Assembly: GCA_016871415.1 (NCBI GenBank) | Contig: VHDL01000008.1 | Span: forward strand, 1 to 64,000 | Origin: Verrucomicrobiota bacterium | GTDB lineage: Bacteria; Verrucomicrobiota; Verrucomicrobiia; Opitutales; UBA953 | Length of the DNA: 64,000 nt | Direction: 5' to 3' | Shown here: piece after piece, positions 1-11,206 of the stretch | How positions within the stretch are numbered: position 1 is the stretch's first letter | Layout of the letters: the number at the start of each line of letters is the position of its first letter | Position numbers and translations under genes: made by a program | The notes under the pieces: model-generated | What the model was told of the DNA's origin: nothing | Databases searched by the model: none | Seen by the model: only the letters and a program-made list of their open reading frames with translations

Positions 1-116
1 AGGGGCAGGGACAGGGGCAGGGGCAGGGACAGGGACAGGGACAGGGGCAGGGGCAGGGGCAGGGACAGGGGCAGGGGCAGGGGCAGGGGCAGGGGTAGGG
101 ACAGGGGCAGGGGTAG
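1..116. repeat. G-rich hexamer tandem array
   Basis: Nearly perfect run of GGGGCA and GGGACA hexamers, with two GGGGTA variants near its right end. G runs of three or four are separated by two or three bases, so the + strand could form G-quadruplexes. An inverted block of the same units (CCCCTGTCCCTGCCCC type) lies at 231-254. Related arrays sit at 5269-5290, 5400-5436 and 16641-16714. The array runs off the left edge of the window. No coding function is apparent. Confidence 0.9.
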
Positions 117-119
117 GGC

Positions 120-156
120 GGCCGAGAGGCAAGAGGTGCGCCCGTGCCCACGTGTC
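120..156. repeat. Dispersed 37-bp repeat, copy 1
   Basis: This stretch, from GGCCGAGAGGCAAGAGG to CCCACGTGTC, recurs almost without change at 5637-5674 in the other repeat-rich gap. In both places it adjoins GGGCAGGG-type sequence, so the arrays and this block seem to travel together. No open frame of interest crosses it. Confidence 0.85.
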
Positions 157-267: not shown

Positions 268-2844
268 TCACCTTCTCCACACTTTGCCGTCGGTGGTGAC
301 GAGGATGACGTCGAGTTTCTCGCGCTCCGCAATCTGCCTGGCCTTGTCGAAGCCGGCCGCCATAAGCGCGGTCGACCAACCATCCGCGACGACGCAGCTT
401 GAGGCGTAGACGGCCGCCATCTCCAAGGTGGGCGTGACGGGCTTGCCGGTGCGGGGAGAGAGGATGTGTCCGGCCTCGCGTCCCTCGAGCTTGCGACGGG
501 CGCGATAGAGTCCCGAGACCGCCAGTGCGCGGTCCTTGAGTTTCGGCGTGTCGAGCTGGCGCCCGGGATTCATGGGATCTTCGACGCCGACCCGCCAGCT
601 GCCGGCGGCGAGAAGTTCGCCTCCGACTTCGATGAGAAATTCGTCGTGGCCCTCCGCCTTGAGGATCTGCGCAAGGCGGTCCGCTGCGTGGCCCTGGAGC
701 AGCGAGCCCAGGTCGAGGGCCGTGCGCGGGTGCTTCTTCGCCAGCGTGAGCGCCTTGGTGTCGGTGACGAGATTGGTCCAGCCGACCGCGGGCAGGACCG
801 TCGCGATCTCCGCGTCCGTCGGTGCCGTGGCGCGCTTGCCCGAAGGTCCGTAGCCCCAGAGGTCGAGCAGCGGCGCCACCGTGAGGTCGTAGTCGCCGCC
901 GGTGGCCTCGCCGAGCCGTCGTCCGAGCAGCACCAGTTGCATCAGTTCATCCGTGATGCCGAAAGGCCGGAGGGTGCCCCGTGCGTTGAAGTCATGGGTG
1001 CCCGAGGAGTCGCGCCAGTGAGAGAGCGAGAACTCCACGCGCCCGGCCTCCGCCTCCAGCTCGCGCTTGAGGATGTCGACGTCGAAGCCGTCGCCGCGCA
1101 CCTTGACCGTCCACGTCGTGCCGAAGGCGGCGCCATGGATCTCGGTCACCGTCGGGGACGGGGGTTCGGGCAGCGACGCTTCGGGCCGGGCCCAGACCAG
1201 GGCGCCACCCACGGTGAGCAGCGCCAGCGCCACGCCGTCGCGACGGGTGAAGCCCTCGTCCGAGGCGGTCGTGCGGACGAACTTCAGAAGCGCACCGGTG
1301 GGGCACCCATATTTGCAATAGGCCTGGGGGATGAAGACCGAGGCCCCCAGCCCGAGGACCGCCAGCCCGAGTGGGATGGAGGCTGAAATCCCCAGAATCC
1401 AGGCATCGAAGGGTTCGACCCGGTTGAGGTCGAAGGCGGGCAGGGCCAGGGCGATCAGAAAGGCCGCTCCGAGGCTCCAAGAGGGCACTTTGGACAGCCA
1501 GGCGTGGGTCTTGCCTGTCAGGGGCCAGTGGAGGCTCCTGAAGCGCCCTAGGAGCTCCTGGGCGGCCCCGTGGGGGCAGACATGGTAGCAATAAATCTGC
1601 TTACGGGTCGCCCAGGGCACCAGGAGGGCGATCGCCCCCAGCACGACCAGTTCGGGGGCGGCTTTCCAGGGCAGGCCGTGCCGCGCCCAGCCGGAGTAGA
1701 GTCCGAGTGAGACCAGCTGGCCGAGCCAGAGGCCCGTGCCACCGACCAGCGCCACCTGCCAGACCGTCCGGAGCCAAGGTTTTCCGTTCAGCCGCGTGAA
1801 CGCCATTGCCAGCGCGCCGAGCAGCAGCAGGCCGGCGGCGGCGCGACGCACCCAGGTCACACGTTCCTCCTTGGCCGCGGCGGCGGCGCGGCGGTCATCG
1901 GCGAACCTGCGGCGCAACCCTTCCGCGACCGCGAAGCTCGTCATCGTCGCGCCCGCTACGCCTTCCAGTCCGGCCTGGTTGAAGTCGAGCGTCGCCCACT
2001 GTTCGACGTCCCATTTCGCCAGCGAGGCGAGGTAGGCCGGGTCTTCCTTCACCCGACGCACGTAATCGGCGGTGTCGTAGGTCGAGCGGATGAGCACCTG
2101 GCGGATCGTGCGGGCGTCCGGCGCGACCGCCGCGAGCGTGTCCGTCGGCCCCGCGTAGCCCGTGGCCTCGTCGCCCGAGGGGGACGTGCGCACGAGGAAG
2201 CCAAGCGTGGAGCCCGCGGCGTCCCTGACCCGATGCCAGCCGAGGCGCGGTGAGCCGCTTTCGAGCGCGGCCGCGTCCGTGAAGCCGGCGGCCTTCGCCT
2301 CCTCGACCGAGAGCGGCGTGGGGAAGCGCAGCGAGGCGTAGGTGCCGGACAGCCGCTGCTGGACGGATTCCGCGACCGCGTAGGCTGTGAGCGTCGAGCC
2401 GGCGATCCCTTCGAGCTTCGGGGCCGGGCGCGTGCGGGGCGTCCAGCCCGTGAACGAGGTCGCGAAGGCCGGGTCGGACTTCAGCTGCGCGACGTGGGCC
2501 GCCGTGTCCTCGCTCGAGAGGATGCGGATGCCGAGCACCCGGTCGTCGTTGTCGAGCGCCACGAGCACGTTGGTCGGGCCGGAGTAGCCCACGATGCGGT
2601 CGGCCTCCGGCGAAGTCGTGACCAGACGCCCAACCCGGTTGCCGAAGGCGTCGAGTGCGAGCACCGAGCGGTCCGCCGCGGCCTTGAGCCGGGAGGCGTC
2701 AGGGAAGAACGCGCGCGCCTGGGCCAGCGAGAGCGCTGGCGGGTCGCCCGCCGCCGGGTCCGAGGCATGAAGCAGGAAGGCCGCCGCGCCGAGCGCAAGC
2801 GGCCTCCAGAGGCGGGCGAGCCAGGCCTGGGCGCCCGAGGCCAT
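268..2844 (-). CDS. NosR-like membrane electron-transfer protein with two FMN-binding domains and fused ApbE flavinyltransferase
   Basis: 858 residues. Seen: N-terminal hydrophobic segment (about 13-26); two FMN-binding domains (about 80-165 and 215-310) with putative flavinylation motifs AGSTLT (Thr153) and AGATMT (Thr302); about five membrane segments (334-550); two CxxxCP motifs (C419/C423 in CYHVCPHG, C510/C514 in CKYGCPTG); and a full ApbE domain (about 565-858) with DLGSLLQGHAADR and GHILSPRTGKPV. Known: ApbE enzymes attach FMN covalently to Thr in such domains, and NosR/RnfG-type proteins move electrons across the membrane to extracytoplasmic acceptors. Inferred: the protein flavinylates itself. 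Its start lies 3 nt after the stop of the exported FAD oxidoreductase gene, which suggests shared expression and possibly an electron partner. The whole architecture is clear but the partner and the donor are not. Confidence 0.85.
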   Translation of the reverse strand: MASGAQAWLARLWRPLALGAAAFLLHASDPAAGDPPALSLAQARAFFPDASRLKAAADRSVLALDAFGNRVGRLVTTSPEADRIVGYSGPTNVLVALDNDDRVLGIRILSSEDTAAHVAQLKSDPAFATSFTGWTPRTRPAPKLEGIAGSTLTAYAVAESVQQRLSGTYASLRFPTPLSVEEAKAAGFTDAAALESGSPRLGWHRVRDAAGSTLGFLVRTSPSGDEATGYAGPTDTLAAVAPDARTIRQVLIRSTYDTADYVRRVKEDPAYLASLAKWDVEQWATLDFNQAGLEGVAGATMTSFAVAEGLRRRFADDRRAAAAAKEERVTWVRRAAAGLLLLGALAMAFTRLNGKPWLRTVWQVALVGGTGLWLGQLVSLGLYSGWARHGLPWKAAPELVVLGAIALLVPWATRKQIYCYHVCPHGAAQELLGRFRSLHWPLTGKTHAWLSKVPSWSLGAAFLIALALPAFDLNRVEPFDAWILGISASIPLGLAVLGLGASVFIPQAYCKYGCPTGALLKFVRTTASDEGFTRRDGVALALLTVGGALVWARPEASLPEPPSPTVTEIHGAAFGTTWTVKVRGDGFDVDILKRELEAEAGRVEFSLSHWRDSSGTHDFNARGTLRPFGITDELMQLVLLGRRLGEATGGDYDLTVAPLLDLWGYGPSGKRATAPTDAEIATVLPAVGWTNLVTDTKALTLAKKHPRTALDLGSLLQGHAADRLAQILKAEGHDEFLIEVGGELLAAGSWRVGVEDPMNPGRQLDTPKLKDRALAVSGLYRARRKLEGREAGHILSPRTGKPVTPTLEMAAVYASSCVVADGWSTALMAAGFDKARQIAEREKLDVILVTTDGKVWRR

Positions 2845-2847
2845 CGC

Positions 2848-5205
2848 TCAGTTCACCGGGACCAGCTGCACCAGGTCGGCGTGCACGTTGCCCTTCACGC
2901 CGGTGGTGGAGAGCACGACCGCGTGCTCACCGGCGGTGAAGTCGTAGGCGCCGATGACCATGGGCTTCTCCAGTTCGCCGTGCGTCTGGTCGATGCGCTT
3001 CTCGACCGGCTTGGCACTGGCGCGTTCGAGGATGACGAGCGCGTTGGGCGAGCGGTTCTCGTGGCCCGTGAAGTGCACACGCAGTTCGTAGCGTCCCGCC
3101 TTGGGCACGTTGAGCGTGAAGCGCGCGGTGTTGGCGCCTTTGCCCGCGTAGTGGTAGCCGATGCCGTAGTGGGGCAGCCCTTCGCCCTTGGTCCACTTGC
3201 CCGTGAACTTGGCGTCGGAGTCGTCGGCTACCACGCCAGGCATCTTCTTGAGCAGGGCCAGCTCGTGCTCGCCCATCTTCTCGGGCGCGGCGTCGCCATG
3301 CAGGTCGCGGTTCATGCGGCCGACCGGCAGCGCCTTGAAGTCGGCGATCGAGCCGTCGAGCCGCAGGGAGGCGGCGAGGGAGTCGCGGCGCATGCGGCCG
3401 GGCTGCTCGAGGAGCTGCAGCAGTTCGGCGAGGTGCTTCTCATAGACGCCGCGGGGCGTGGTGCCTTCGCGCACGGCCAGGTAGGCGGCCTTGCCGACGA
3501 CTTCGCCCATCATGCCGATGGTGCGCATCACGCGCACCGTGCCGAGGGCCTCATGGGTGACGGAGATGTGCCGTCCGGCCATGAACAGATTGGGGATGTT
3601 GCGGGAGTAGAACAGGCGGTAGGGCAGCGGGTAGCCGTTGCGGCGGTCGACCGCGGCCTTGCCCTCGGCGCCGCGGGCGCCGAAGGCCGCGCGGGAGATG
3701 AAGGGGTTGTCCGGGAACTTGGCGGCGTACTGCTCGCGCGGGTAGTGGAGGTCGATGTCCCAGGTGGTGGGCACCGTGCCGTCGGGGAACTCGCGCTTGG
3801 CGACGATGTCGGGGCCGGTCAGCACGATGTCGCCGCGCAGCAGGCGGGATTCGCGGGGCCCGCCCACGTGCGAGGCCCACTTGAGGGCGGCGTTGGCGTG
3901 GCGGTCCTTGTCCTGGCCGGTCTTGAGCGCGGAGAAGGCTCCGTACATCGCGCGGAGGTTCCAGTCGCGAATCAGCTCCAGGTCCTTGATCGGGTCCTTG
4001 TCGAAGCCCGATTCCCAGAACCACTCGGCCTTGTAGAACGGCTTGTCCTCGAGGAACGACTTCGAGCGCTGCAGGGTCGGGAAGTCGCCCATCTCGAGGG
4101 GCAGCGCCCAGGGCGTGGCCGGCCAGGCCTGGGGCGTGGCCTCGTTCTGGTAGAACCACATGTTGGACATGCCCATGCGTCCCTTGGGTTCGATCTCGAG
4201 GTCCGCGCCGGCCGCCGCGCCGAGGTGGCCGTGGCCGGTGGTGTCGGCGAAGAACTTGCCGCGGAAGACGCGCTGGCGGCCCGTGCGGGTGTCGATGGCG
4301 GTCACCGAGGCGATGCGGCCGTCCTTCATCGTCACGCCGGTGGCGTAGTGGTTGAGGAAGAGCGAGACGGTCTTCTCGGCGCGCACGACGCGCTCCTTGA
4401 GGTCGTCGGCGAAGGAGTCGACGCGGCCGGGGCTGTCGGGGGCGCGGTCGGCGATCTCCTCGATCATCTCGCCGAGGTGCGGGAACTTGCCGCGCATGGT
4501 GCCTCCCATGGCCCAGACGCCGATCTCGGAGCTGCCGTTGCCGCCGAGCACGGGGCGGTCCTGGATGAGGGCCACGCGAAGCGACTGACGGGCCGCGGAA
4601 AGGGTGGCGCCGAGGCCGCCGTAGCCGCCGCCGACGACCACGAGGTCGAATTCACCGGCGTCCTCCGGGCCGTCGGGATTGATGAAGCCGTGGCGATACT
4701 TCTCGAGGCCCTGAGCGGCGTCCGGCGGAGTCGAGGCATCGGTGGTCAGCACGATGGCGTCGACGCGTCCGTCGAAGCCGGTCAGGTCATGCAGGGCCAG
4801 CCTGTGCTCGCCTGCGGTGAGGGAGATCTTGCCGCCGTCCTGCCAGTGCCAGTCGGCGCCCTTGGTGCCGAACTCGGTCTCGAGGGCGCGTCCGTTGATG
4901 ACGACCTGGAAGCGACCGGGGGCGCCGGGGGCCTTCCACGGGGCGACCCAGTCCTTGGTGCGCACCCAGACGCGATATTCTCCGGCGACGGGGGCCCGGA
5001 AGGCACCCGTGGCGTCGGCCACCGGCCGTCCCAGGCCATGGGCCAGAAGGTAGGGCGACCCGACGATGTGGGTGAAGTGGGTGTCGAGCTTCCACCCGCC
5101 GTGCTGGTCGAGGGATTCGGCCTCGATGAAGACCGTCTCGGCACGGAGGGCGGAGACGGTGAAGAGGAGGGATAGGCTGGTCAGGCCGAGCAGACGGGGA
5201 ATCAT
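2848..5205 (-). CDS. Exported FAD-dependent oxidoreductase with flanking beta-sandwich domains
   Basis: 785 residues. Seen: Sec-type signal peptide (about 1-22, ending SALRAE); an N-terminal beta-rich region (about 25-155) that looks like a carbohydrate-binding or golvesin-like sandwich; a dinucleotide-binding motif GGGYGGLG (192-199) that opens the FAD_oxidored-type core (about 186-620); and a second beta-sandwich at the C-terminus (about 655-785). Known: this family is common in Verrucomicrobiota and Planctomycetota and is usually annotated only as FAD-dependent oxidoreductase; the substrates are mostly unknown. It is the first gene of a two-gene leftward unit with the NosR-ApbE protein. 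A carbohydrate-type substrate is a guess based on the flanking domains. Confidence 0.8.
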   Translation of the reverse strand: MIPRLLGLTSLSLLFTVSALRAETVFIEAESLDQHGGWKLDTHFTHIVGSPYLLAHGLGRPVADATGAFRAPVAGEYRVWVRTKDWVAPWKAPGAPGRFQVVINGRALETEFGTKGADWHWQDGGKISLTAGEHRLALHDLTGFDGRVDAIVLTTDASTPPDAAQGLEKYRHGFINPDGPEDAGEFDLVVVGGGYGGLGATLSAARQSLRVALIQDRPVLGGNGSSEIGVWAMGGTMRGKFPHLGEMIEEIADRAPDSPGRVDSFADDLKERVVRAEKTVSLFLNHYATGVTMKDGRIASVTAIDTRTGRQRVFRGKFFADTTGHGHLGAAAGADLEIEPKGRMGMSNMWFYQNEATPQAWPATPWALPLEMGDFPTLQRSKSFLEDKPFYKAEWFWESGFDKDPIKDLELIRDWNLRAMYGAFSALKTGQDKDRHANAALKWASHVGGPRESRLLRGDIVLTGPDIVAKREFPDGTVPTTWDIDLHYPREQYAAKFPDNPFISRAAFGARGAEGKAAVDRRNGYPLPYRLFYSRNIPNLFMAGRHISVTHEALGTVRVMRTIGMMGEVVGKAAYLAVREGTTPRGVYEKHLAELLQLLEQPGRMRRDSLAASLRLDGSIADFKALPVGRMNRDLHGDAAPEKMGEHELALLKKMPGVVADDSDAKFTGKWTKGEGLPHYGIGYHYAGKGANTARFTLNVPKAGRYELRVHFTGHENRSPNALVILERASAKPVEKRIDQTHGELEKPMVIGAYDFTAGEHAVVLSTTGVKGNVHADLVQLVPVN

Positions 5206-5439
5206 GCTCCGATTAGATGGCCGAAGGGCGGGGGAGTTCCAGCCAGATGTGGGTGCTTAGAGGGAGATGGGGGCAGGGACAGGGACAGGGAGATGACAGA
5301 TGACGGATGACGGATGGCTGAATCGATGACAGATCCGCAGCGGATCATCCGGTCTTGGGTAAGGCCGACGCAGGGCGGCCGAGGGTAGGGGCTGACTTCG
5401 AGGGACAGGGGCAGGGACAGGGGCGGGGACAGTGGGAGA

Positions 5440-5558
5440 GGTAGGGCGGCCATTGCCATGGCCGCCGTTCGCCGAGGCAGGCGAGTCGCGCCGGGCAAGT
5501 CGACCGACCTGCCCGGCGCCCGTAGGCCCACGGACGTGATGGCAATCACGTCCCTACC
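5440..5558. repeat. 119-bp element with terminal inverted repeats and three hairpins
   Basis: Bounded by GGTAGGG (5440-5446) and its inverse CCCTACC (5552-5558). Inside are three perfect hairpins: GGCGGCCAT/ATGGCCGCC (5445-5453, 5458-5466), GCGCCGGGCA/TGCCCGGCGC (5488-5497, 5510-5519) and GGACGTGAT/ATCACGTCC (5532-5540, 5545-5553). The first and third have 4-nt loops, TGCC and GGCA, which are reverse complements of each other. No transposase is nearby. It looks like a miniature intergenic repeat unit, perhaps mobilised in trans. Confidence 0.7.
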
Positions 5559-5636
5559 GGCGCGGCATGGCCGCGGGGACAGGGGCAGTTGAGGTGCAAA
5601 GGCGAGATGGAGAGGGGGTATCCACTGGGGGCAGGG

Positions 5637-5740: not shown

Positions 5741-6310
5741 TTACTTCTTCTTCCCCTGCTGCATCCGTTCCCGGAAGCGTTCGGCTTGGGCGTCGAGGAT
5801 GGTGTCTACGTCCTTGGCCTCGAGGGAACCGTCGGCGGCCATGACCGCCTTCTTCTGGGCTTCGCGCAGGTCGCCGAAGAGGGCCTGAAAATCCTGGGCT
5901 GCGTCACGCTTCTCGTTTTCCGAGGCGTATTCGAGACGCTTCCGCAGGTCGCTCATCTTGGTGAAAATCTCCCGCACGCTTTCATCCTGGAAGGCTTTCA
6001 TGGAGGCCGCGCGGAACTTGGCCATCACTTCCGGAGCCACGCCCTCGACGTCGGGAAGCATCCCCTGTCCGCCCTTGAAGCGGCCGCCGAACTGACCTTT
6101 CGGGGCTTCGCCCTTGGGCGCCTCAGGGGCGGGTGCGGCGGGCTGTTCGAGCGGGGCGGCCGCGACGGTCTTGACGGGAGCGGCCGGCTCGCGCGCCTCG
6201 ATCTTGGCTGACTTCGTCTCGGCGGGCGCGGCAGGGCGCACGGCGATGTAGGTGGCGGCGCTGCCCAGGGCGGCGGCCATGATCAGGGGGAGGATTTCGC
6301 GGAATGACAT
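5741..6310 (-). CDS. Small exported or membrane-anchored helical protein, family member A
   Basis: 189 residues, function unknown. Seen: an N-terminal hydrophobic segment (about 6-24), an Ala/Pro/Lys-rich linker (about 25-85), then a mostly helical charged domain (about 88-185) that opens with an EGVAPEVMAKF motif. That motif and the EK-rich helix after it recur in the proteins at 6335-6877 and 7055-7453. It ends with a Lys-rich tail. It lies 24 nt downstream of member B and probably shares its transcript. The shape recalls periplasmic Spy/CpxP-like helical proteins, but no LTxxQ motif is evident, so no function is assigned. Confidence 0.75.
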   Translation of the reverse strand: MSFREILPLIMAAALGSAATYIAVRPAAPAETKSAKIEAREPAAPVKTVAAAPLEQPAAPAPEAPKGEAPKGQFGGRFKGGQGMLPDVEGVAPEVMAKFRAASMKAFQDESVREIFTKMSDLRKRLEYASENEKRDAAQDFQALFGDLREAQKKAVMAADGSLEAKDVDTILDAQAERFRERMQQGKKK

Positions 6311-6334: not shown

Positions 6335-6877
6335 TCACTTCTTTTCCTCGGGCTTCTTCTCGCCGAAGGGGAACGGTTTCGGGGGAGTCTTGCCCTTCGG
6401 CGCATCCTTGCCCTTGGCGGCCTTGGCGGCTTCCGCGCGTTCGCGGTTGATGTTCTCGATTTCGGCGAACACCCGGTCGACCGCGCCCTTCTCGATGGCG
6501 GGGTCCGCGGCGATCATGGCCTCCTTGAGCGCTTTGCGCATGTCGTAGGTGGCGTTCTCGAAGTCCGTCCTCATGTCCTTCTTCTCCAGGGCCGAGGCGA
6601 ATTCAGTCTGCTCCTTGAGTTCAGCCAGCCGTTTGCGGGCCGCGGCGGCGCCGTCGCTCATGTAGGCCTTCGGGAGCTGCTCCCGGATCTTGGCCAGCTG
6701 CTCTTCGGATACCCCCTCGACCTTCTCCGGAACGAAGGGCGCCGCCTTGCCGGCGACTTTCTTGCCCGCCTTCTTCTTCGCGGCGGGCGGCTGGACCTGG
6801 GGCTTGGCGGGCTTGTCCTCAGCCGAAGCCAGGACGGCCAGGCACAGGGTGAGGACGGACAGGAACAGGGGCTTCAT
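6335..6877 (-). CDS. Small exported helical protein, family member B
   Basis: 180 residues from the ATG at 6877. A longer frame starts 7 codons upstream, but this ATG follows an AGGTG ribosome site and begins a clean signal peptide (MKPLFLSVLTLCLAVLASA). After it come a Lys/Pro/Ala linker and a helical domain with EGVSEEQLAKI (about residues 58-68), TEFASALEKKDM and KEAMIAADP segments that align with member A. The C-terminus is again Lys/Pro rich. No known function. Member A follows 24 nt later, so the two are likely cotranscribed from the promoter proposed at 6885-6914. Confidence 0.75.
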   Translation of the reverse strand: MKPLFLSVLTLCLAVLASAEDKPAKPQVQPPAAKKKAGKKVAGKAAPFVPEKVEGVSEEQLAKIREQLPKAYMSDGAAAARKRLAELKEQTEFASALEKKDMRTDFENATYDMRKALKEAMIAADPAIEKGAVDRVFAEIENINRERAEAAKAAKGKDAPKGKTPPKPFPFGEKKPEEKK

Positions 6878-6884
6878 GCTGCAC

Positions 6885-6914
6885 CTATAACACCGCACGA
6901 GTTGCGAAGTTCAA
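6885..6914 (-). promoter_or_regulatory. Candidate promoter of small-protein gene B
   Basis: On the leftward strand TTGAAC (6909-6914) is followed after 18 nt by TTATAG (6885-6890). The -10 element ends only 7 nt before the ATG at 6877, so the transcript would be leaderless or nearly so, although an AGGTG site overlaps this stretch. A similar arrangement, GTTTGAA then GTTAT, precedes gene C at 7474-7504. Confidence 0.4.
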
Positions 6915-7054: not shown

Positions 7055-7453
7055 TTACTCTTTCTTCTTCTTCTTTTCTCCGCCCTTGCCGCCCTTGCCC
7101 TTGCCGGCCGCTTCGAGCTTGGCGAAGACTTCGGCGAGGGAGGCGTCGGCCTTGAGGACGGCGGCCTTGGTGGCTTCGCGGAGGGCCTTGCCGGCTTCCT
7201 TCTTCTCGTCTTCGGACTTGGCCTCGGCGAGCTTGGCTTTGGCGGCCTTGACGGCGTCGTCGGACTGGGCGGCCTTCATGGCGTCCTGGAACTTCTTCCA
7301 GGTGGCTTCGTCCACGCCTTCGGGGCGGGCCGAGCCCTTCTTTTCGCCCTTGCCTTCCTTCTTGGCAGGGGGCTGGCCTTCGGGCTTCTTTTCCTGGGCG
7401 GTGGCGACGCCGACCGAGAGGACGAGCGCGAGAATGGTGAGGAGGTGCTTCAT
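7055..7453 (-). CDS. Small exported helical protein, family member C
   Basis: 132 residues from the ATG at 7453. Upstream in-frame starts would put the signal peptide in the middle of the protein, so they are rejected. Seen: signal peptide ending about VGVATAQ, a Lys-rich linker, an EGVDEATWKKF motif (about 47-57), a helical region rich in Ala, Lys, Glu and Asp, and a Lys/Gly tail (KGGKGGEKKKKKE). It is the shortest of the related proteins and lacks the longer middle helix of A and B. It has its own terminator and a candidate promoter, so it is expressed as a single gene. Function unknown. Confidence 0.75.
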   Translation of the reverse strand: MKHLLTILALVLSVGVATAQEKKPEGQPPAKKEGKGEKKGSARPEGVDEATWKKFQDAMKAAQSDDAVKAAKAKLAEAKSEDEKKEAGKALREATKAAVLKADASLAEVFAKLEAAGKGKGGKGGEKKKKKE

Positions 7454-7473
7454 GTGTGTATGGGGATGCACCC

Positions 7474-7504
7474 ACATAACCCCCGAAGGACCGGGGAGTT
7501 TCAA
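7474..7504 (-). promoter_or_regulatory. Candidate promoter of small-protein gene C
   Basis: TTGAAA (7499-7504) and TTATGT (7474-7479) on the leftward strand, 19 nt apart, about 20 nt before the ATG at 7453. The GTTTGAA and GTTAT cores match those ahead of gene B. The spacing is slightly long for a sigma70-type promoter. Confidence 0.4.
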
Positions 7505-7519
7505 ACACTTATTTGATTT

Positions 7520-8317
7520 ATGACGCTTCGGCGGCTGGCGCCCTTCTCCGTCGGGGGGCAGGGTGGAGGGGTGACCCCGCTCCTGCTTCATATTCCGCAC
7601 GCGGCCGACCTCGTTCCGGAGGCGGTAAAGGGGGATTTCCTCGTTTCAGAGGAGGTTCTGGCCTTCGAGAGGCTCAGGCTGACGGACTGGTTCACGGATA
7701 AGCTCTACGGGCGGGGTGCGGACCCGGAGGACGTGATTGCTGCCCGAATCTCCCGGCTGGTGGTGGACGTGGAGCGTTATGAGGATGACGCTCGCGAGCC
7801 CTGCGCCAAGGTCGGCATGGGGGCGACCTATGTAAGCACGACCGATGGCCGGCTCCTGCGTTCACTGTCGCCGGAAAGGAGGGAGGCTCTAATCGAGGCC
7901 CATTACCGGCCGCATCACCGTCGGCTCGATGACGCCGCACGGCTGAGGCTGGAGCGTTTCGGCCGCTGCGTCGTTTTGGACGCGCATTCTTTTCCCTCGC
8001 GCGCGCTGCCCACGCAGCGGGATTTCGGCGATCCGCCGGAGATCGGCCTGGGCACCGAGCCCGGACACACGCCGACCGCACTGCTCAACGAAGCCGAGGC
8101 ATTCTTCCGCGCCCACGGCTTCAAGGTCGGCGTCAACGTGCCGTTCAGCGGCGCAATGGTGCCTGCGGCCTTCCTGGGCCGTGATGCGCGCGTGAGCGCG
8201 ATCATGGTGGAGGTGCGACGCGACCTGTACATGGACGAGTCGACCGGACTCCGTGGCCCCGGCTTCGTCCGCATCCGCGACGTGCTGACGGAATTTCGCG
8301 GTACGCTCACCGCGTGA
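7520..8317 (+). CDS. N-formylglutamate amidohydrolase family protein
   Basis: 265 residues. Known: this family (PF05013) hydrolyses N-formylglutamate to glutamate and formate in one histidine degradation route; some members act on other N-formyl amino acids. Seen: LLLHIPHA near residue 22, RLVVDVERYEDD (about 79-90), VVLDAHSFPS (about 153) and IMVEVRRDLYMDE (about 231), the usual spread of conserved metal and substrate residues. There are no other hut genes nearby. It stands alone, divergent from gene C and overlapping the 3' end of gene D (tail to tail) by 11 nt. The start is uncertain because no strong ribosome site precedes the ATG. Confidence 0.82.
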   Translation: MTLRRLAPFSVGGQGGGVTPLLLHIPHAADLVPEAVKGDFLVSEEVLAFERLRLTDWFTDKLYGRGADPEDVIAARISRLVVDVERYEDDAREPCAKVGMGATYVSTTDGRLLRSLSPERREALIEAHYRPHHRRLDDAARLRLERFGRCVVLDAHSFPSRALPTQRDFGDPPEIGLGTEPGHTPTALLNEAEAFFRAHGFKVGVNVPFSGAMVPAAFLGRDARVSAIMVEVRRDLYMDESTGLRGPGFVRIRDVLTEFRGTLTA

Positions 8318-8819
8318 CCACGGGCTCAGGCGCTGGCCTCGCCACTTCGGCGCGGAGCAGCGCCATCGCCTCATCCCACATCGCCTTGGCGTCCGGCAGC
8401 CTCGCCTCACGGGCCTCCTCGGTGGCGTCCTTCCAGCCGGCCTCCAGCGCCTGCCACTCCTTGATGAGTTCCTTGACCCGAGGCGTCTCAATCCAGCGCT
8501 TGGCCGCGGCGTCGAAGGTCGCCGGGTGGGCCGCCTTGAGCTCGTTGATCACCCGCACCCCCTCCTGCACGACCAAGGCCTTACGCAATTCGGCCGGGGC
8601 GGAGACCACGTTGTCCCTCGGATTCAGCTTCAGGTCGGCCGCGCTGCGGGGCTTTGAGCCCTTCACCTCCGGCCCGGTCTTGACCGGGCGGCCCGGAGCG
8701 GGGCCCGCATGGGCTGCGGACGCGTCCTTCTCCGGGTCTTCCCGCATCAGCGCCCACGTCACGCCTGCCGCGATGAATGCGGCCAGCAGGGCGTTGGGCC
8801 AGACGCGGGACGAGGCCAC
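8307..8819 (-). CDS. Membrane-anchored helical protein, family member D
   Basis: 170 residues from a GTG start (MASSRVW). Seen: one N-terminal membrane segment (about 8-24), a Pro/Lys linker and a helical domain (about 70-160). The stretch ELIKEWQALEAGWKDATEEAREA aligns with the corresponding part of member E, which also begins MASSR. More weakly it aligns with the EK-rich helix of A and B. It lies 9 nt after gene E and is probably translated from the same message. Function unknown. Confidence 0.7.
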   Translation of the reverse strand: MASSRVWPNALLAAFIAAGVTWALMREDPEKDASAAHAGPAPGRPVKTGPEVKGSKPRSAADLKLNPRDNVVSAPAELRKALVVQEGVRVINELKAAHPATFDAAAKRWIETPRVKELIKEWQALEAGWKDATEEAREARLPDAKAMWDEAMALLRAEVARPAPEPVVTR

Positions 8820-8828
8820 GTCAGCGTC

Positions 8829-9509
8829 TCACTGGATGATGACCGGCCGCTTGGAAAAGGGAGCCGGGTCGGGCGCGTTCGCGGGCGCGGCCCCGTTCTG
8901 ATTGGCGGGCAGCGTGACCGACTGGACGCGAACCCCGGGCGGCAGGCCGTCGCCCTGCGGCGCTCCGTTGATGCGCCCCATCTCCTCCTTGAGGCGTGCG
9001 AGCCCGATTGTGCGGATCAGCTCCATCTCCCGCATGATGCCCTCTTTTTCGCCGTCGGTCGCCGTCTTCCACTGCCCCTCCAGCTCGTGCCTCCGGCGGA
9101 ACAACTCCTTGAACTTCTCGTCCTGCAGGGCGGCGCCAAACGCGGCCCGCATCTTGTCGCGGTCGCCGCCGGAGATCTCCTCGACCATCTTGCGGCTGTT
9201 GTCGTTGAAGCTCGCGAACCTCTCCTCGAGCGCGGCCTTGGCGGCGGAGGACTTCTCCTTCACCATCTCCTTGTTGCGGTCGAAGTCCGGCCGGACGTTC
9301 TCCTCGGAATTGAGCACGAGACCGCTGGTGCTGCGCGCCTTGATCTCCCCGCCCGGGTCGACCGCGGAAGCGCGCTTGGGCGCCTTTGTCTGGGCGGCGG
9401 TCGCCTCCGTCACGGCCTCCTTGATCGGGGTCGCGTAGCGGCTGATGCCGATGCCGGTCAGGACGCAGAGTCCGACGGTCAAGATGATGAAGGAGCGGCT
9501 GGAGGCCAT
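8829..9509 (-). CDS. Membrane-anchored helical protein, family member E
   Basis: 226 residues. Seen: N-terminal membrane segment (about 7-24), a linker, a long helical region with AAFGAALQDEKFKELF and RRHELEGQWKTATDGEK (about 125-160), then a Pro/Asn/Ala-rich tail. The DExxxELF and EK patterns resemble member A (QDESVREIF, SENEK), which ties the two clusters together. It is the first gene of a two-gene unit with D. The protein is predicted to sit on the outer face of the inner membrane. Function unknown. Confidence 0.72.
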   Translation of the reverse strand: MASSRSFIILTVGLCVLTGIGISRYATPIKEAVTEATAAQTKAPKRASAVDPGGEIKARSTSGLVLNSEENVRPDFDRNKEMVKEKSSAAKAALEERFASFNDNSRKMVEEISGGDRDKMRAAFGAALQDEKFKELFRRRHELEGQWKTATDGEKEGIMREMELIRTIGLARLKEEMGRINGAPQGDGLPPGVRVQSVTLPANQNGAAPANAPDPAPFSKRPVIIQ

Positions 9510-9616
9510 GGGGCGTTTGTCTTACTAATGATTTTAAACCTCCGGAAAAGGGGGAAGTTCCGTCCGGCGGTCCTTTGCCTCGACTCAGGGCGCCTGCTCC
9601 CGCCAATAATGGGTCC

Positions 9617-11206
9617 ATGTCCAGCGACCCGTCACTCACCGGCCTCTCCTTCATTGGCTTCACCCGCGGCCGCGTCGGCGGCCGGACCTGGCGGGCCTTC
9701 GACCCCGCCGCTGGTTCCGAGCTGCCCGAGCCATTCCACACGGCACACGCCGATGAGGTCGACCGCGCGGCGGAACTGGCCGCGGCCGCCGCCCCCGCCC
9801 TGGCCGCGCTTTCCGGCAAGGCTAAGGCCGCGTTCCTCCGTGCACTCGCCGACCGCGTCGCCGCCGCTACCCCGGCGCTCGCCGCCCGAGCCATGCGCGA
9901 GACAGCGCTGCCCGAGGCCCGCTGCCAGGGTGAGATCGGCCGGACGGTCGGACAGCTCCGCCTCTTCGCCGCCCTGGTTGAGAAGGGCGAGTGGGTCGAC
10001 GCGCGCATCGAGCACGCGGACCCCGAGCGGAAACCCGTGCCCAAGCCGGACCACCGTTCGATGTGCCGCCCGCTCGGCCCGGTCGCGGTCTTCTGCGCCA
10101 GCAACTTCCCGTTCGCCTACTCCGTGGCCGGCGGCGACACCGCGTCGGCCTTCGCCGCGGGCTGCCCCGTCGTCGTGGTGGCGCATCAGGCCCACCCCGG
10201 CACCGCCGAGATCATGGCCGGACTGGTCGTCTCCGCCGTTCGCGAAGTTGGCCTGCCCGAGGGCACGTTCTCGATGGTGCAGGGCGACGGACGCGACGTG
10301 GGCCAACGTCTGGTGAAGCACCCCACGCTCAGCGCAGTCGGGTTCACTGGCTCCCGCGCGGGAGGCCGCGCCCTGATGGACCTCGCCGCCGCCCGGCCTT
10401 TGCCCATCCCTGTCTACGCCGAGATGAGCAGCGTGAACCCCGTCGTGCTTCTCGAAGGTGCGCTGGCCTCGCGTGGTGAGGCCGTCGCCTCCGGCATGGT
10501 CGGCTCCTGCACCCTGGGCGTGGGCCAGTTCTGCACCCAGCCCGGCGTGCTCCTCCTCGTGCGCTCCGCCGCCGCGGAGGCCTTCATCGCAAAACTCGCC
10601 TCGCTCTTCGCCGCCGCGCCGGAGGGCGTTATGCTCACCCCAGGCATCCGGCGCGCCTACGCCGCGGCCGTTGCCGCCCGATCCGCGCGTAAGGGCGTAC
10701 GCGTGCTGGCGACCGGGCCGTCCAGCGACCGTTCCTGCGGCGCCCAGGCCGCGCTGCTGCAGGTCTCAGCGTCCGACTTCATCGCCGACGGCACGCTGCA
10801 CGAGGAGGTCTTCGGCCCCTGTTCGCTCGTGGTGGTCTGCGACAACCTCGCCCAGCTGCATCGCGCCCTCGAATCGATGGAGGGCAGCCTTACGGCCACC
10901 CTGCACGCTTCGGATGCCGAGCTGCCGCAGCAGCAGGCGCTGCTCGCGCGTCTCAGCGAACTCGCCGGTCGCGTCATCCTCAACGGATTCCCCACCGGCG
11001 TCGAAGTCTCGCACGCCATCGTCCACGGCGGACCCTATCCCTCCTTGTCCGACGGACGCACGACCTCGGTCGGCTCCAATGCCATCTACCGTTTCACGCG
11101 CCTGGTCTGCTACCAGGGCTTCGCTGACGCGGCGCTGCCGGACGAGCTCAAGGAGTCGAACCCCCTGGGCATCGCGCGTCTGGTCGACGGCGTGAGGCGC
11201 GTCTGA
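9617..11206 (+). CDS. Aldehyde dehydrogenase of the alpha-ketoglutarate semialdehyde dehydrogenase type
   Basis: 529 residues from the ATG at 9617; a start 14 codons upstream adds no conserved sequence. Seen: GPVAVFCASNFPFAYSVAGG (nucleotide and substrate pocket), VGFTGSRAGGRALMDLAAA, the general-base region VYAEMSSVNP and the catalytic cysteine in LGVGQFCTQPG. Known: these motifs are typical of 2,5-dioxovalerate dehydrogenases, which oxidise alpha-ketoglutarate semialdehyde to alpha-ketoglutarate with NAD(P) at the end of pentose, hexarate or hydroxyproline breakdown. No other gene of those routes is adjacent, so the in vivo substrate is inferred from family only. It is monocistronic and convergent with the next gene. 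Confidence 0.82.
   Translation: MSSDPSLTGLSFIGFTRGRVGGRTWRAFDPAAGSELPEPFHTAHADEVDRAAELAAAAAPALAALSGKAKAAFLRALADRVAAATPALAARAMRETALPEARCQGEIGRTVGQLRLFAALVEKGEWVDARIEHADPERKPVPKPDHRSMCRPLGPVAVFCASNFPFAYSVAGGDTASAFAAGCPVVVVAHQAHPGTAEIMAGLVVSAVREVGLPEGTFSMVQGDGRDVGQRLVKHPTLSAVGFTGSRAGGRALMDLAAARPLPIPVYAEMSSVNPVVLLEGALASRGEAVASGMVGSCTLGVGQFCTQPGVLLLVRSAAAEAFIAKLASLFAAAPEGVMLTPGIRRAYAAAVAARSARKGVRVLATGPSSDRSCGAQAALLQVSASDFIADGTLHEEVFGPCSLVVVCDNLAQLHRALESMEGSLTATLHASDAELPQQQALLARLSELAGRVILNGFPTGVEVSHAIVHGGPYPSLSDGRTTSVGSNAIYRFTRLVCYQGFADAALPDELKESNPLGIARLVDGVRRV

What the first reader, a model, noticed from the sequence alone, without database searches (positions are those of the whole stretch)
268..5205. 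Exported FAD oxidoreductase paired with a self-flavinylating NosR-ApbE membrane protein
One polypeptide joins two FMN-binding domains with AGSTLT and AGATMT sites, two transmembrane CxxxCP motifs and a complete ApbE domain. The gene ahead, 3 nt away, is a signal-peptide FAD oxidoreductase with sandwich domains. ApbE flavinylation and NosR-type electron transfer are established. A dedicated electron path from the membrane to an extracytoplasmic flavoprotein with a carbohydrate-like substrate is inference.
Basis: partly seen in the sequence, partly recalled or inferred. Interest (0 to 1): 0.68.

Follow-up and report, generated by a model that had tools for sequence, protein, structure and literature searches.

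The report
Flavoenzyme with self-flavinylating membrane electron relay
Two adjacent bacterial genes encode an exported flavin enzyme and a membrane protein that appears to attach its own flavins and wire that enzyme to the cell's respiratory chain; the two genes stay together, and were passed on together, across at least two bacterial phyla, but the chemical they act on is still unknown.

Summary
Window 268-2844(-) encodes an 858-aa protein with two FMN_bind domains, a NosR/NapH-type membrane core with two CxxxCP motifs, and a complete ApbE domain. Three bases upstream, 2848-5205(-) encodes a 785-aa Sec-exported PF12831 FAD oxidoreductase between a CBM35/6-like and a golvesin/xanthan-lyase-type sandwich domain. 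One correction: by the published ApbE motif the FMN acceptors are Thr151 and Thr300, not Thr153 and Thr302. The suggested refutation (relatives do not keep the genes together) failed. All 23 Opitutae loci where both genes could be called have them 3 nt apart. In 388 Verrucomicrobiota and 294 Planctomycetota genomes, every genome with a close relative of the membrane protein (18/18 and 21/21) also has the oxidoreductase, even where the genes lie far apart. The oxidoreductases of these genomes form one clade (44 of 46 rows), and the trees of the two proteins agree (r = 0.87), including cross-phylum groupings. I conclude this is a dedicated, self-flavinylating, NapH/NosR-like electron relay for an exported PF12831 oxidoreductase: a new variant of a known kind. 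Substrate and electron direction remain open; substrate oxidation feeding quinone is my preferred reading. A glycan substrate is plausible, not shown.

The parts
2848..5205 (-). Exported FAD oxidoreductase, 785 aa: Sec-type signal peptide (~1-22), CBM35/6-like beta-sandwich (~24-155), PF12831 FAD domain (187-595), Golvesin_C sandwich (659-782)
268..2844 (-). Membrane electron-transfer protein, 858 aa: N-terminal anchor, two FMN_bind domains, NosR/NapH-like membrane core, C-terminal ApbE flavin transferase
2392..2394 (-). Codon of Thr151, predicted FMN acceptor of FMN domain 1 (EGIAGST)
   Evidence: motif rule from PMC12052999
1945..1947 (-). Codon of Thr300, predicted FMN acceptor of FMN domain 2 (EGVAGAT); invariant in all 15 aligned rows
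1573..1590 (-). First CxxxCP motif (C419-P424, CYHVCP)
1300..1317 (-). Second CxxxCP motif (C510-P515, CKYGCP), invariant in the aligned relatives
304..1125 (-). ApbE domain (residues 574-847); His793, Asp821 and Thr825 match conserved ApbE positions

Best explanation
A two-component extracytoplasmic redox system. The signal-peptide protein is a flavin dehydrogenase/oxidoreductase outside the cytoplasmic membrane. The partner is a NapH/NosR-type membrane relay whose two outward-facing FMN domains take electrons from (preferred) or give electrons to the oxidoreductase, and pass them through the CxxxCP-containing membrane core to (or from) the quinone pool. The ApbE domain fused to its C-terminus attaches the FMN groups to Thr151 and Thr300, so the relay matures itself. 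Shown by computation: domains, motifs, compatible topology, pairing, co-inheritance. Inferred: covalent FMN, electron transfer between the two proteins, direction (substrate oxidation feeding quinone, then the heme-copper oxidase), and a sugar or polysaccharide substrate. The confidence given is for the paired relay as such, in either direction; the oxidative direction alone is about 0.55.
For: Every genome with a close NosR-like relative has the oxidoreductase: 18/18 in Verrucomicrobiota (24 of 388 genomes have an oxidoreductase of at least 590 bits; hypergeometric 3e-26) and 21/21 in Planctomycetota (26 of 294 at 529 bits or more; 1e-27), not corrected for shared ancestry. The gap is 3 nt in all 23 Opitutae loci with both genes called, and mostly 0 to 10 nt or a slight overlap in adjacent relatives of other groups. 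Oxidoreductases of NosR-positive genomes fall in one clade (44 of 46 rows, SH-aLRT 99; 2 changes of state against 17 in shuffles). The NosR tree matches (Mantel r 0.87, 0 of 2000 permutations) and repeats groupings that cross phyla: Planctomycetota G496/G607 with the window's family, and G349/G161 of the window's order among Planctomycetota. In G496/G607 the two genes are not adjacent, so physical linkage alone does not explain the match. FMN_bind occurs in this genome only in this protein, and no NQR2_RnfD_RnfE protein was found. A COX1-type oxidase is present (492.7 bits). Signal peptides look Sec-like in the linked clade, while some unlinked relatives start without one.
Against: No biochemistry was found for this subfamily. 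The search scored only the best 2-3 candidates per genome, so absences are less certain than presences. G007 and G020 have a clade member (53-54% identity, full length) but no close relay; only a distant NosR-like core inside another protein was found. A second, divergent ApbE gene exists in the window's genome (71 bits). One relative (L020) has Thr in place of the conserved Asp821. The oxidoreductase model is weak in the substrate region (mean pLDDT 63, residues 460-531 below 50), so the fold does not name a substrate.
Confidence: 0.8

Rival explanations
1. Same two-component relay, opposite direction: quinol gives electrons through the membrane core and FMN domains to the oxidoreductase, which reduces an external compound, as in fumarate/urocanate-reductase-like respiration or NosR/PceC.
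For: Characterised NosR and PceC systems are thought to run towards a reductase (PMC5928378, PMC8238504). The FAD domain resembles fumarate-reductase and flavocytochrome c3 folds weakly by Foldseek.
Against: The genome encodes a heme-copper oxidase. The family is PF12831 rather than the fumarate-reductase family. Flavinylated NapH-like proteins beside an alcohol oxidase suggest that oxidative use also occurs (PMC8238504).
Confidence: 0.3
2. The membrane protein is a general flavin-based electron relay (for example for metal or thiol reduction) and the oxidoreductase is a co-inherited neighbour with an independent job.
For: NapH-like flavinylated proteins are used modularly with many partners (PMC8238504). 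The genes are unlinked in a large share of the surveyed genomes (8 of 21 in Planctomycetota).
Against: Perfect one-way co-occurrence, one oxidoreductase clade, matching trees and shared cross-phylum groupings even where unlinked.
Confidence: 0.1
3. Chance neighbours: the pair is an accident of gene order in one genome.
For: The window begins at a contig start, so the local context is truncated.
Against: Conserved adjacency in Opitutae, Planctomycetota, Hydrogenedentota and Roseibacillus.
Confidence: 0.01

Closest known systems
NosR (nitrous oxide reduction)
   Same: Outward FMN-binding domain, membrane core with two CxxxCP motifs, matured by ApbE
   Different: Two FMN domains here, no C-terminal ferredoxin-type 4Fe-4S motifs, ApbE fused in cis, partner is a PF12831 flavoprotein, not the copper enzyme NosZ
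RdhC/PceC (organohalide respiration)
   Same: FMN domain outside, two CX3CP motifs, no C-terminal ferredoxin clusters
   Different: Two FMN domains, ApbE fused, different partner enzyme
NapH-like flavinylated systems of Meheust et al. 2021 (PMC8238504), including those beside an alcohol oxidase (exaA)
   Same: General class: FMN_bind plus PF12801 membrane protein coupled to an extracytoplasmic oxidoreductase
   Different: PF12831, sugars, fusions and Verrucomicrobiota/Planctomycetota are not mentioned in that paper's main text (its supplementary tables could not be checked)
ApbE fused to its own target: kinetoplastid fumarate reductase (reviewed in PMC12052999)
   Same: Flavin transferase and its target in one polypeptide
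   Different: Eukaryotic, N-terminal ApbE on a fumarate reductase; here a bacterial membrane relay with C-terminal ApbE
Fumarate-reductase-like flavoproteins with an FMN_bind domain (urocanate/fumarate reductases)
   Same: Exported FAD enzyme linked to covalent FMN
   Different: Different FAD family (PF00890); the FMN domain is usually in the enzyme itself

Membership tests
NapH/NosR-like flavinylated membrane electron-transfer proteins | FMN_bind domain joined to a PF12801-type membrane core | tested here: met
NapH/NosR-like flavinylated membrane electron-transfer proteins | Two CX3CP motifs on the side opposite the FMN domain | tested here: met
   topology from hydropathy only
NapH/NosR-like flavinylated membrane electron-transfer proteins | Covalent FMN on the motif threonine | not testable with these tools
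   motif present with Glu for Asp and Ala for Ser/Thr
NosR proper (NCBIfam NF046105) | Full-length match over the curated cut-off | tested here: not met
   27.6 bits against a cut-off of 1000
NosR proper (NCBIfam NF046105) | C-terminal ferredoxin-type 4Fe-4S motifs | tested here: not met
   the C-terminus is an ApbE domain; no other Pfam match
ApbE flavin transferase | Complete ApbE domain with conserved His and Asp/Thr | tested here: met
   profile 1-265/266; His793, Asp821, Thr825; TM-score up to 0.86 to solved ApbE structures. Role of the residues from own knowledge
ApbE flavin transferase | FMN transfer activity | not testable with these tools
   needs biochemistry
PF12831 FAD_oxidored | Full-length profile match over the gathering score | tested here: met
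   199.3 bits, 1-415/416
Fumarate-reductase-like (PF00890) respiratory flavoproteins | Full-length PF00890 domain | tested here: not met
   only the Rossmann part matches, 1-49 of 414
Carbohydrate-active enzyme | Activity on, or binding to, a glycan | tested here: inconclusive
   CBM35/6-like N-domain (TM-score of about 0.66-0.74 to solved CBMs) and xanthan-lyase-type C-domain; no binding residues or substrate tested

The most novel reading that the evidence does not exclude
A previously undescribed respiratory module of the Planctomycetota/Verrucomicrobiota: extracytoplasmic flavin oxidation of glycans (or their fragments) by a CBM-bearing PF12831 enzyme, wired to the quinone pool by a relay that flavinylates itself, and spread between phyla as a functional pair.
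Probability: 0.3. Interest if true: 0.75.

Novelty: new variant of a known kind. Interest (0 to 1): 0.55.

Why it matters
Most NapH-like flavinylated systems still have no assigned reaction (PMC8238504). This one comes with a specific, phylogenetically locked partner enzyme, so the reaction becomes directly testable. It would also give an in-cis bacterial example of ApbE acting on its own polypeptide, and possibly a new way in which freshwater and marine polysaccharide degraders link oxidation outside the cytoplasm to respiration.

Tried and rejected
Chance adjacency: rejected by the survey. Membership in NosR proper: rejected (27.6 bits against a cut-off of 1000, no C-terminal ferredoxin motifs). 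Fumarate-reductase-family enzyme: rejected (PF00890 matches only the Rossmann part). Naming the substrate from the fold: failed because the FAD/substrate part of the model is poorly predicted and Foldseek hits there have TM-scores of about 0.4 or less. Naming the substrate from neighbours: the Opitutae neighbours are uninformative (small secreted paralogues without Pfam hits, a phosphoesterase, PEP-CTERM proteins). A BNR_4 protein, alpha-L-fucosidases and a sulfatase lie beside homologues that lack the close relay, and a heparinase-like protein and sulfatases beside some that have it, but sulfatases are abundant in these phyla (own knowledge) and no background rate was available. Literature searches found no paper on this pair; supplementary tables could not be opened, so a listing there cannot be excluded. 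A simple longest-ORF caller gave many antisense ORFs in these high-GC genomes and was replaced by a codon-usage caller.

Full report
What is there. Window 2848-5205(-) encodes a 785-aa protein with a Sec-type signal peptide and a PF12831 FAD domain (187-595) flanked by two beta-sandwich domains. The C-terminal one matches Golvesin_C, and a xanthan lyase in the PDB. The N-terminal one matches CBM_35 weakly in Pfam (below its cut-off), and its predicted fold matches solved CBM6/CBM35 modules. Three bases further, 268-2844(-) encodes an 858-aa protein with two FMN_bind domains, a PF12801 membrane core with two CxxxCP motifs, and a complete ApbE domain whose predicted fold matches solved ApbE structures (TM-score up to 0.86).

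Correction of the FMN sites. The ApbE motif is D-x-x-[S/T]-G-A-[S/T] and FMN goes on its last residue (PMC12052999). In EGIAGST and EGVAGAT this is Thr151 and Thr300, not Thr153 and Thr302. Thr300 is invariant in all 15 rows aligned, and Thr151 is kept in all that have the first domain. The Asp of the motif is Glu or Asp in most relatives, so the deviation is a family feature; a D-to-A change was reported to matter little (PMC12052999).

Topology. Hydropathy gives an N-terminal segment, then membrane segments near 331-353, 364-382, 391-413, 450-476 and 479-510; the predicted model adds a helix at 534-551. Read with the positive loops inside, the FMN domains and the ApbE domain face outward and both CxxxCP motifs face the cytoplasm. 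PceC likewise has its FMN domain outside and two CX3CP motifs (PMC5928378). This is a reading of the sequence, not an experiment.

Is the pair conserved? Among 30 loci from public genomes, the oxidoreductase lies directly before the relay in nearly all that hold upstream DNA. The gap is 3 nt in all 23 Opitutae loci where both genes could be called, and 7, 10 and 0 nt in Planctomycetales ZRK34, a Hydrogenedentota genome and Roseibacillus. In ZRK34 and Roseibacillus the ApbE is a separate gene or ORF next door, so the fusion looks derived. It is seen in the window's clade and, separately, in G235.

Survey. In 388 Verrucomicrobiota genomes, 18 have a NosR-like match of at least 190 bits and all 18 have an oxidoreductase of at least 590 bits. 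In 294 Planctomycetota genomes, 21 have a NosR-like match of at least 187 bits and all 21 have an oxidoreductase of at least 529 bits. In Planctomycetota 13 of the 21 are adjacent and 8 are not. Hypergeometric probabilities are 3e-26 and 1e-27; they ignore shared ancestry. G407 scored below the NosR threshold but has the relay gene beside its oxidoreductase. Three genomes of the window's family (G149, G176, G302) lack both. The first look scored only two or three candidates per genome, so I re-searched the apparent negatives with the core alone. Most have nothing close; some have distant NosR-like cores in other fusion proteins. The bit thresholds were chosen after seeing the score lists, at their natural breaks.

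Phylogeny. In the oxidoreductase tree (64 rows) the 44 rows from NosR-positive genomes lie in one clade of 46 (SH-aLRT 99). The label needs 2 changes against 17 in shuffles; the exceptions are G007/G020. The NosR tree (46 rows, 43 shared) has correlated distances (Mantel r 0.87, 0 of 2000 permutations). Both trees group Planctomycetota G496/G607 with the window's Opitutae family, and place G349/G161, of the window's order, near Planctomycetota. Since the genes are unlinked in G496/G607, the agreement argues for functional coupling. Vertical descent contributes to the correlation, and no species tree was built here. Both are quick trees without bootstraps.

The genome. G000 is 2.21 Mb, 99.5% complete. 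FMN_bind occurs only in this protein. There are two ApbE genes, this one and a divergent one (71 bits) at C6:79737; no NQR2_RnfD_RnfE protein; and a strong COX1 match. The ApbE domain therefore has an obvious target in cis and no other FMN_bind target. I did not search for DUF2271 or DUF3570 targets.

Mechanism. Best reading: substrate outside the membrane is oxidised at FAD; electrons pass to FMN on Thr151/Thr300, through the membrane core, to quinone, and finally to the heme-copper oxidase. The reverse direction is possible and is how NosR and PceC are thought to work. Aerobic potential and the association of such relays with an alcohol oxidase (PMC8238504) tip me to oxidation, at roughly 55:30 with the remainder other. 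The glycan idea rests on sandwich domains and on neighbours: a BNR_4 protein in G007/G020, alpha-L-fucosidases in G118, a heparinase-like protein in G349, and sulfatase-like ORFs in several loci, recognised by eye from their sequence. It stays an inference.

Comparison with the known. It works like, and by FMN_bind plus PF12801 belongs to, the NapH-like flavinylated systems (PMC8238504). It is not NosR proper. The PF12831 partner, the doubled FMN domain and the fused ApbE make it a new variant. I found no paper describing it, but supplementary tables were out of reach.

Noticed in passing
window 5741-6310, 6335-6898, 7055-7600, 8307-8819, 8829-9509 (all -): Several small (~170-230 aa) mostly Ala-rich, apparently secreted proteins upstream of the pair; the first three belong to a cluster of 48 ORFs in 17 loci of relatives, where they also lie near the pair. 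The member scanned, L004:706-1626, had no Pfam match.
   Followed up: partly
L231 (G007 C32), L226 (G012 C16), L232 (G020 C10): Long ORFs that join a part resembling spermidine synthase/MFS proteins (by eye) to an FMN_bind motif, a NosR-like core with two CxxxCP motifs and a C-terminal Cys cluster.
   Followed up: partly
L225 (G291 C358): FMN motif and NosR-like core followed by a nitroreductase-like domain (by eye) in one 626-aa ORF.
   Followed up: no
window 1-120 and about 5270-5590: G-rich short repeats (AGGGGCAGGGAC type) at the contig start and just upstream of the oxidoreductase gene.
   Followed up: no
L223 (G000 C6) 9465-10379 (-): A second, divergent ApbE gene (71 bits) without an obvious signal peptide, beside a multi-pass membrane protein.
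   Followed up: partly
L072, L169, L170; L066, L075: Relatives of the oxidoreductase without the close relay: some start directly at the sandwich domain with no signal peptide, others have a twin-arginine-like signal.
   Followed up: partly
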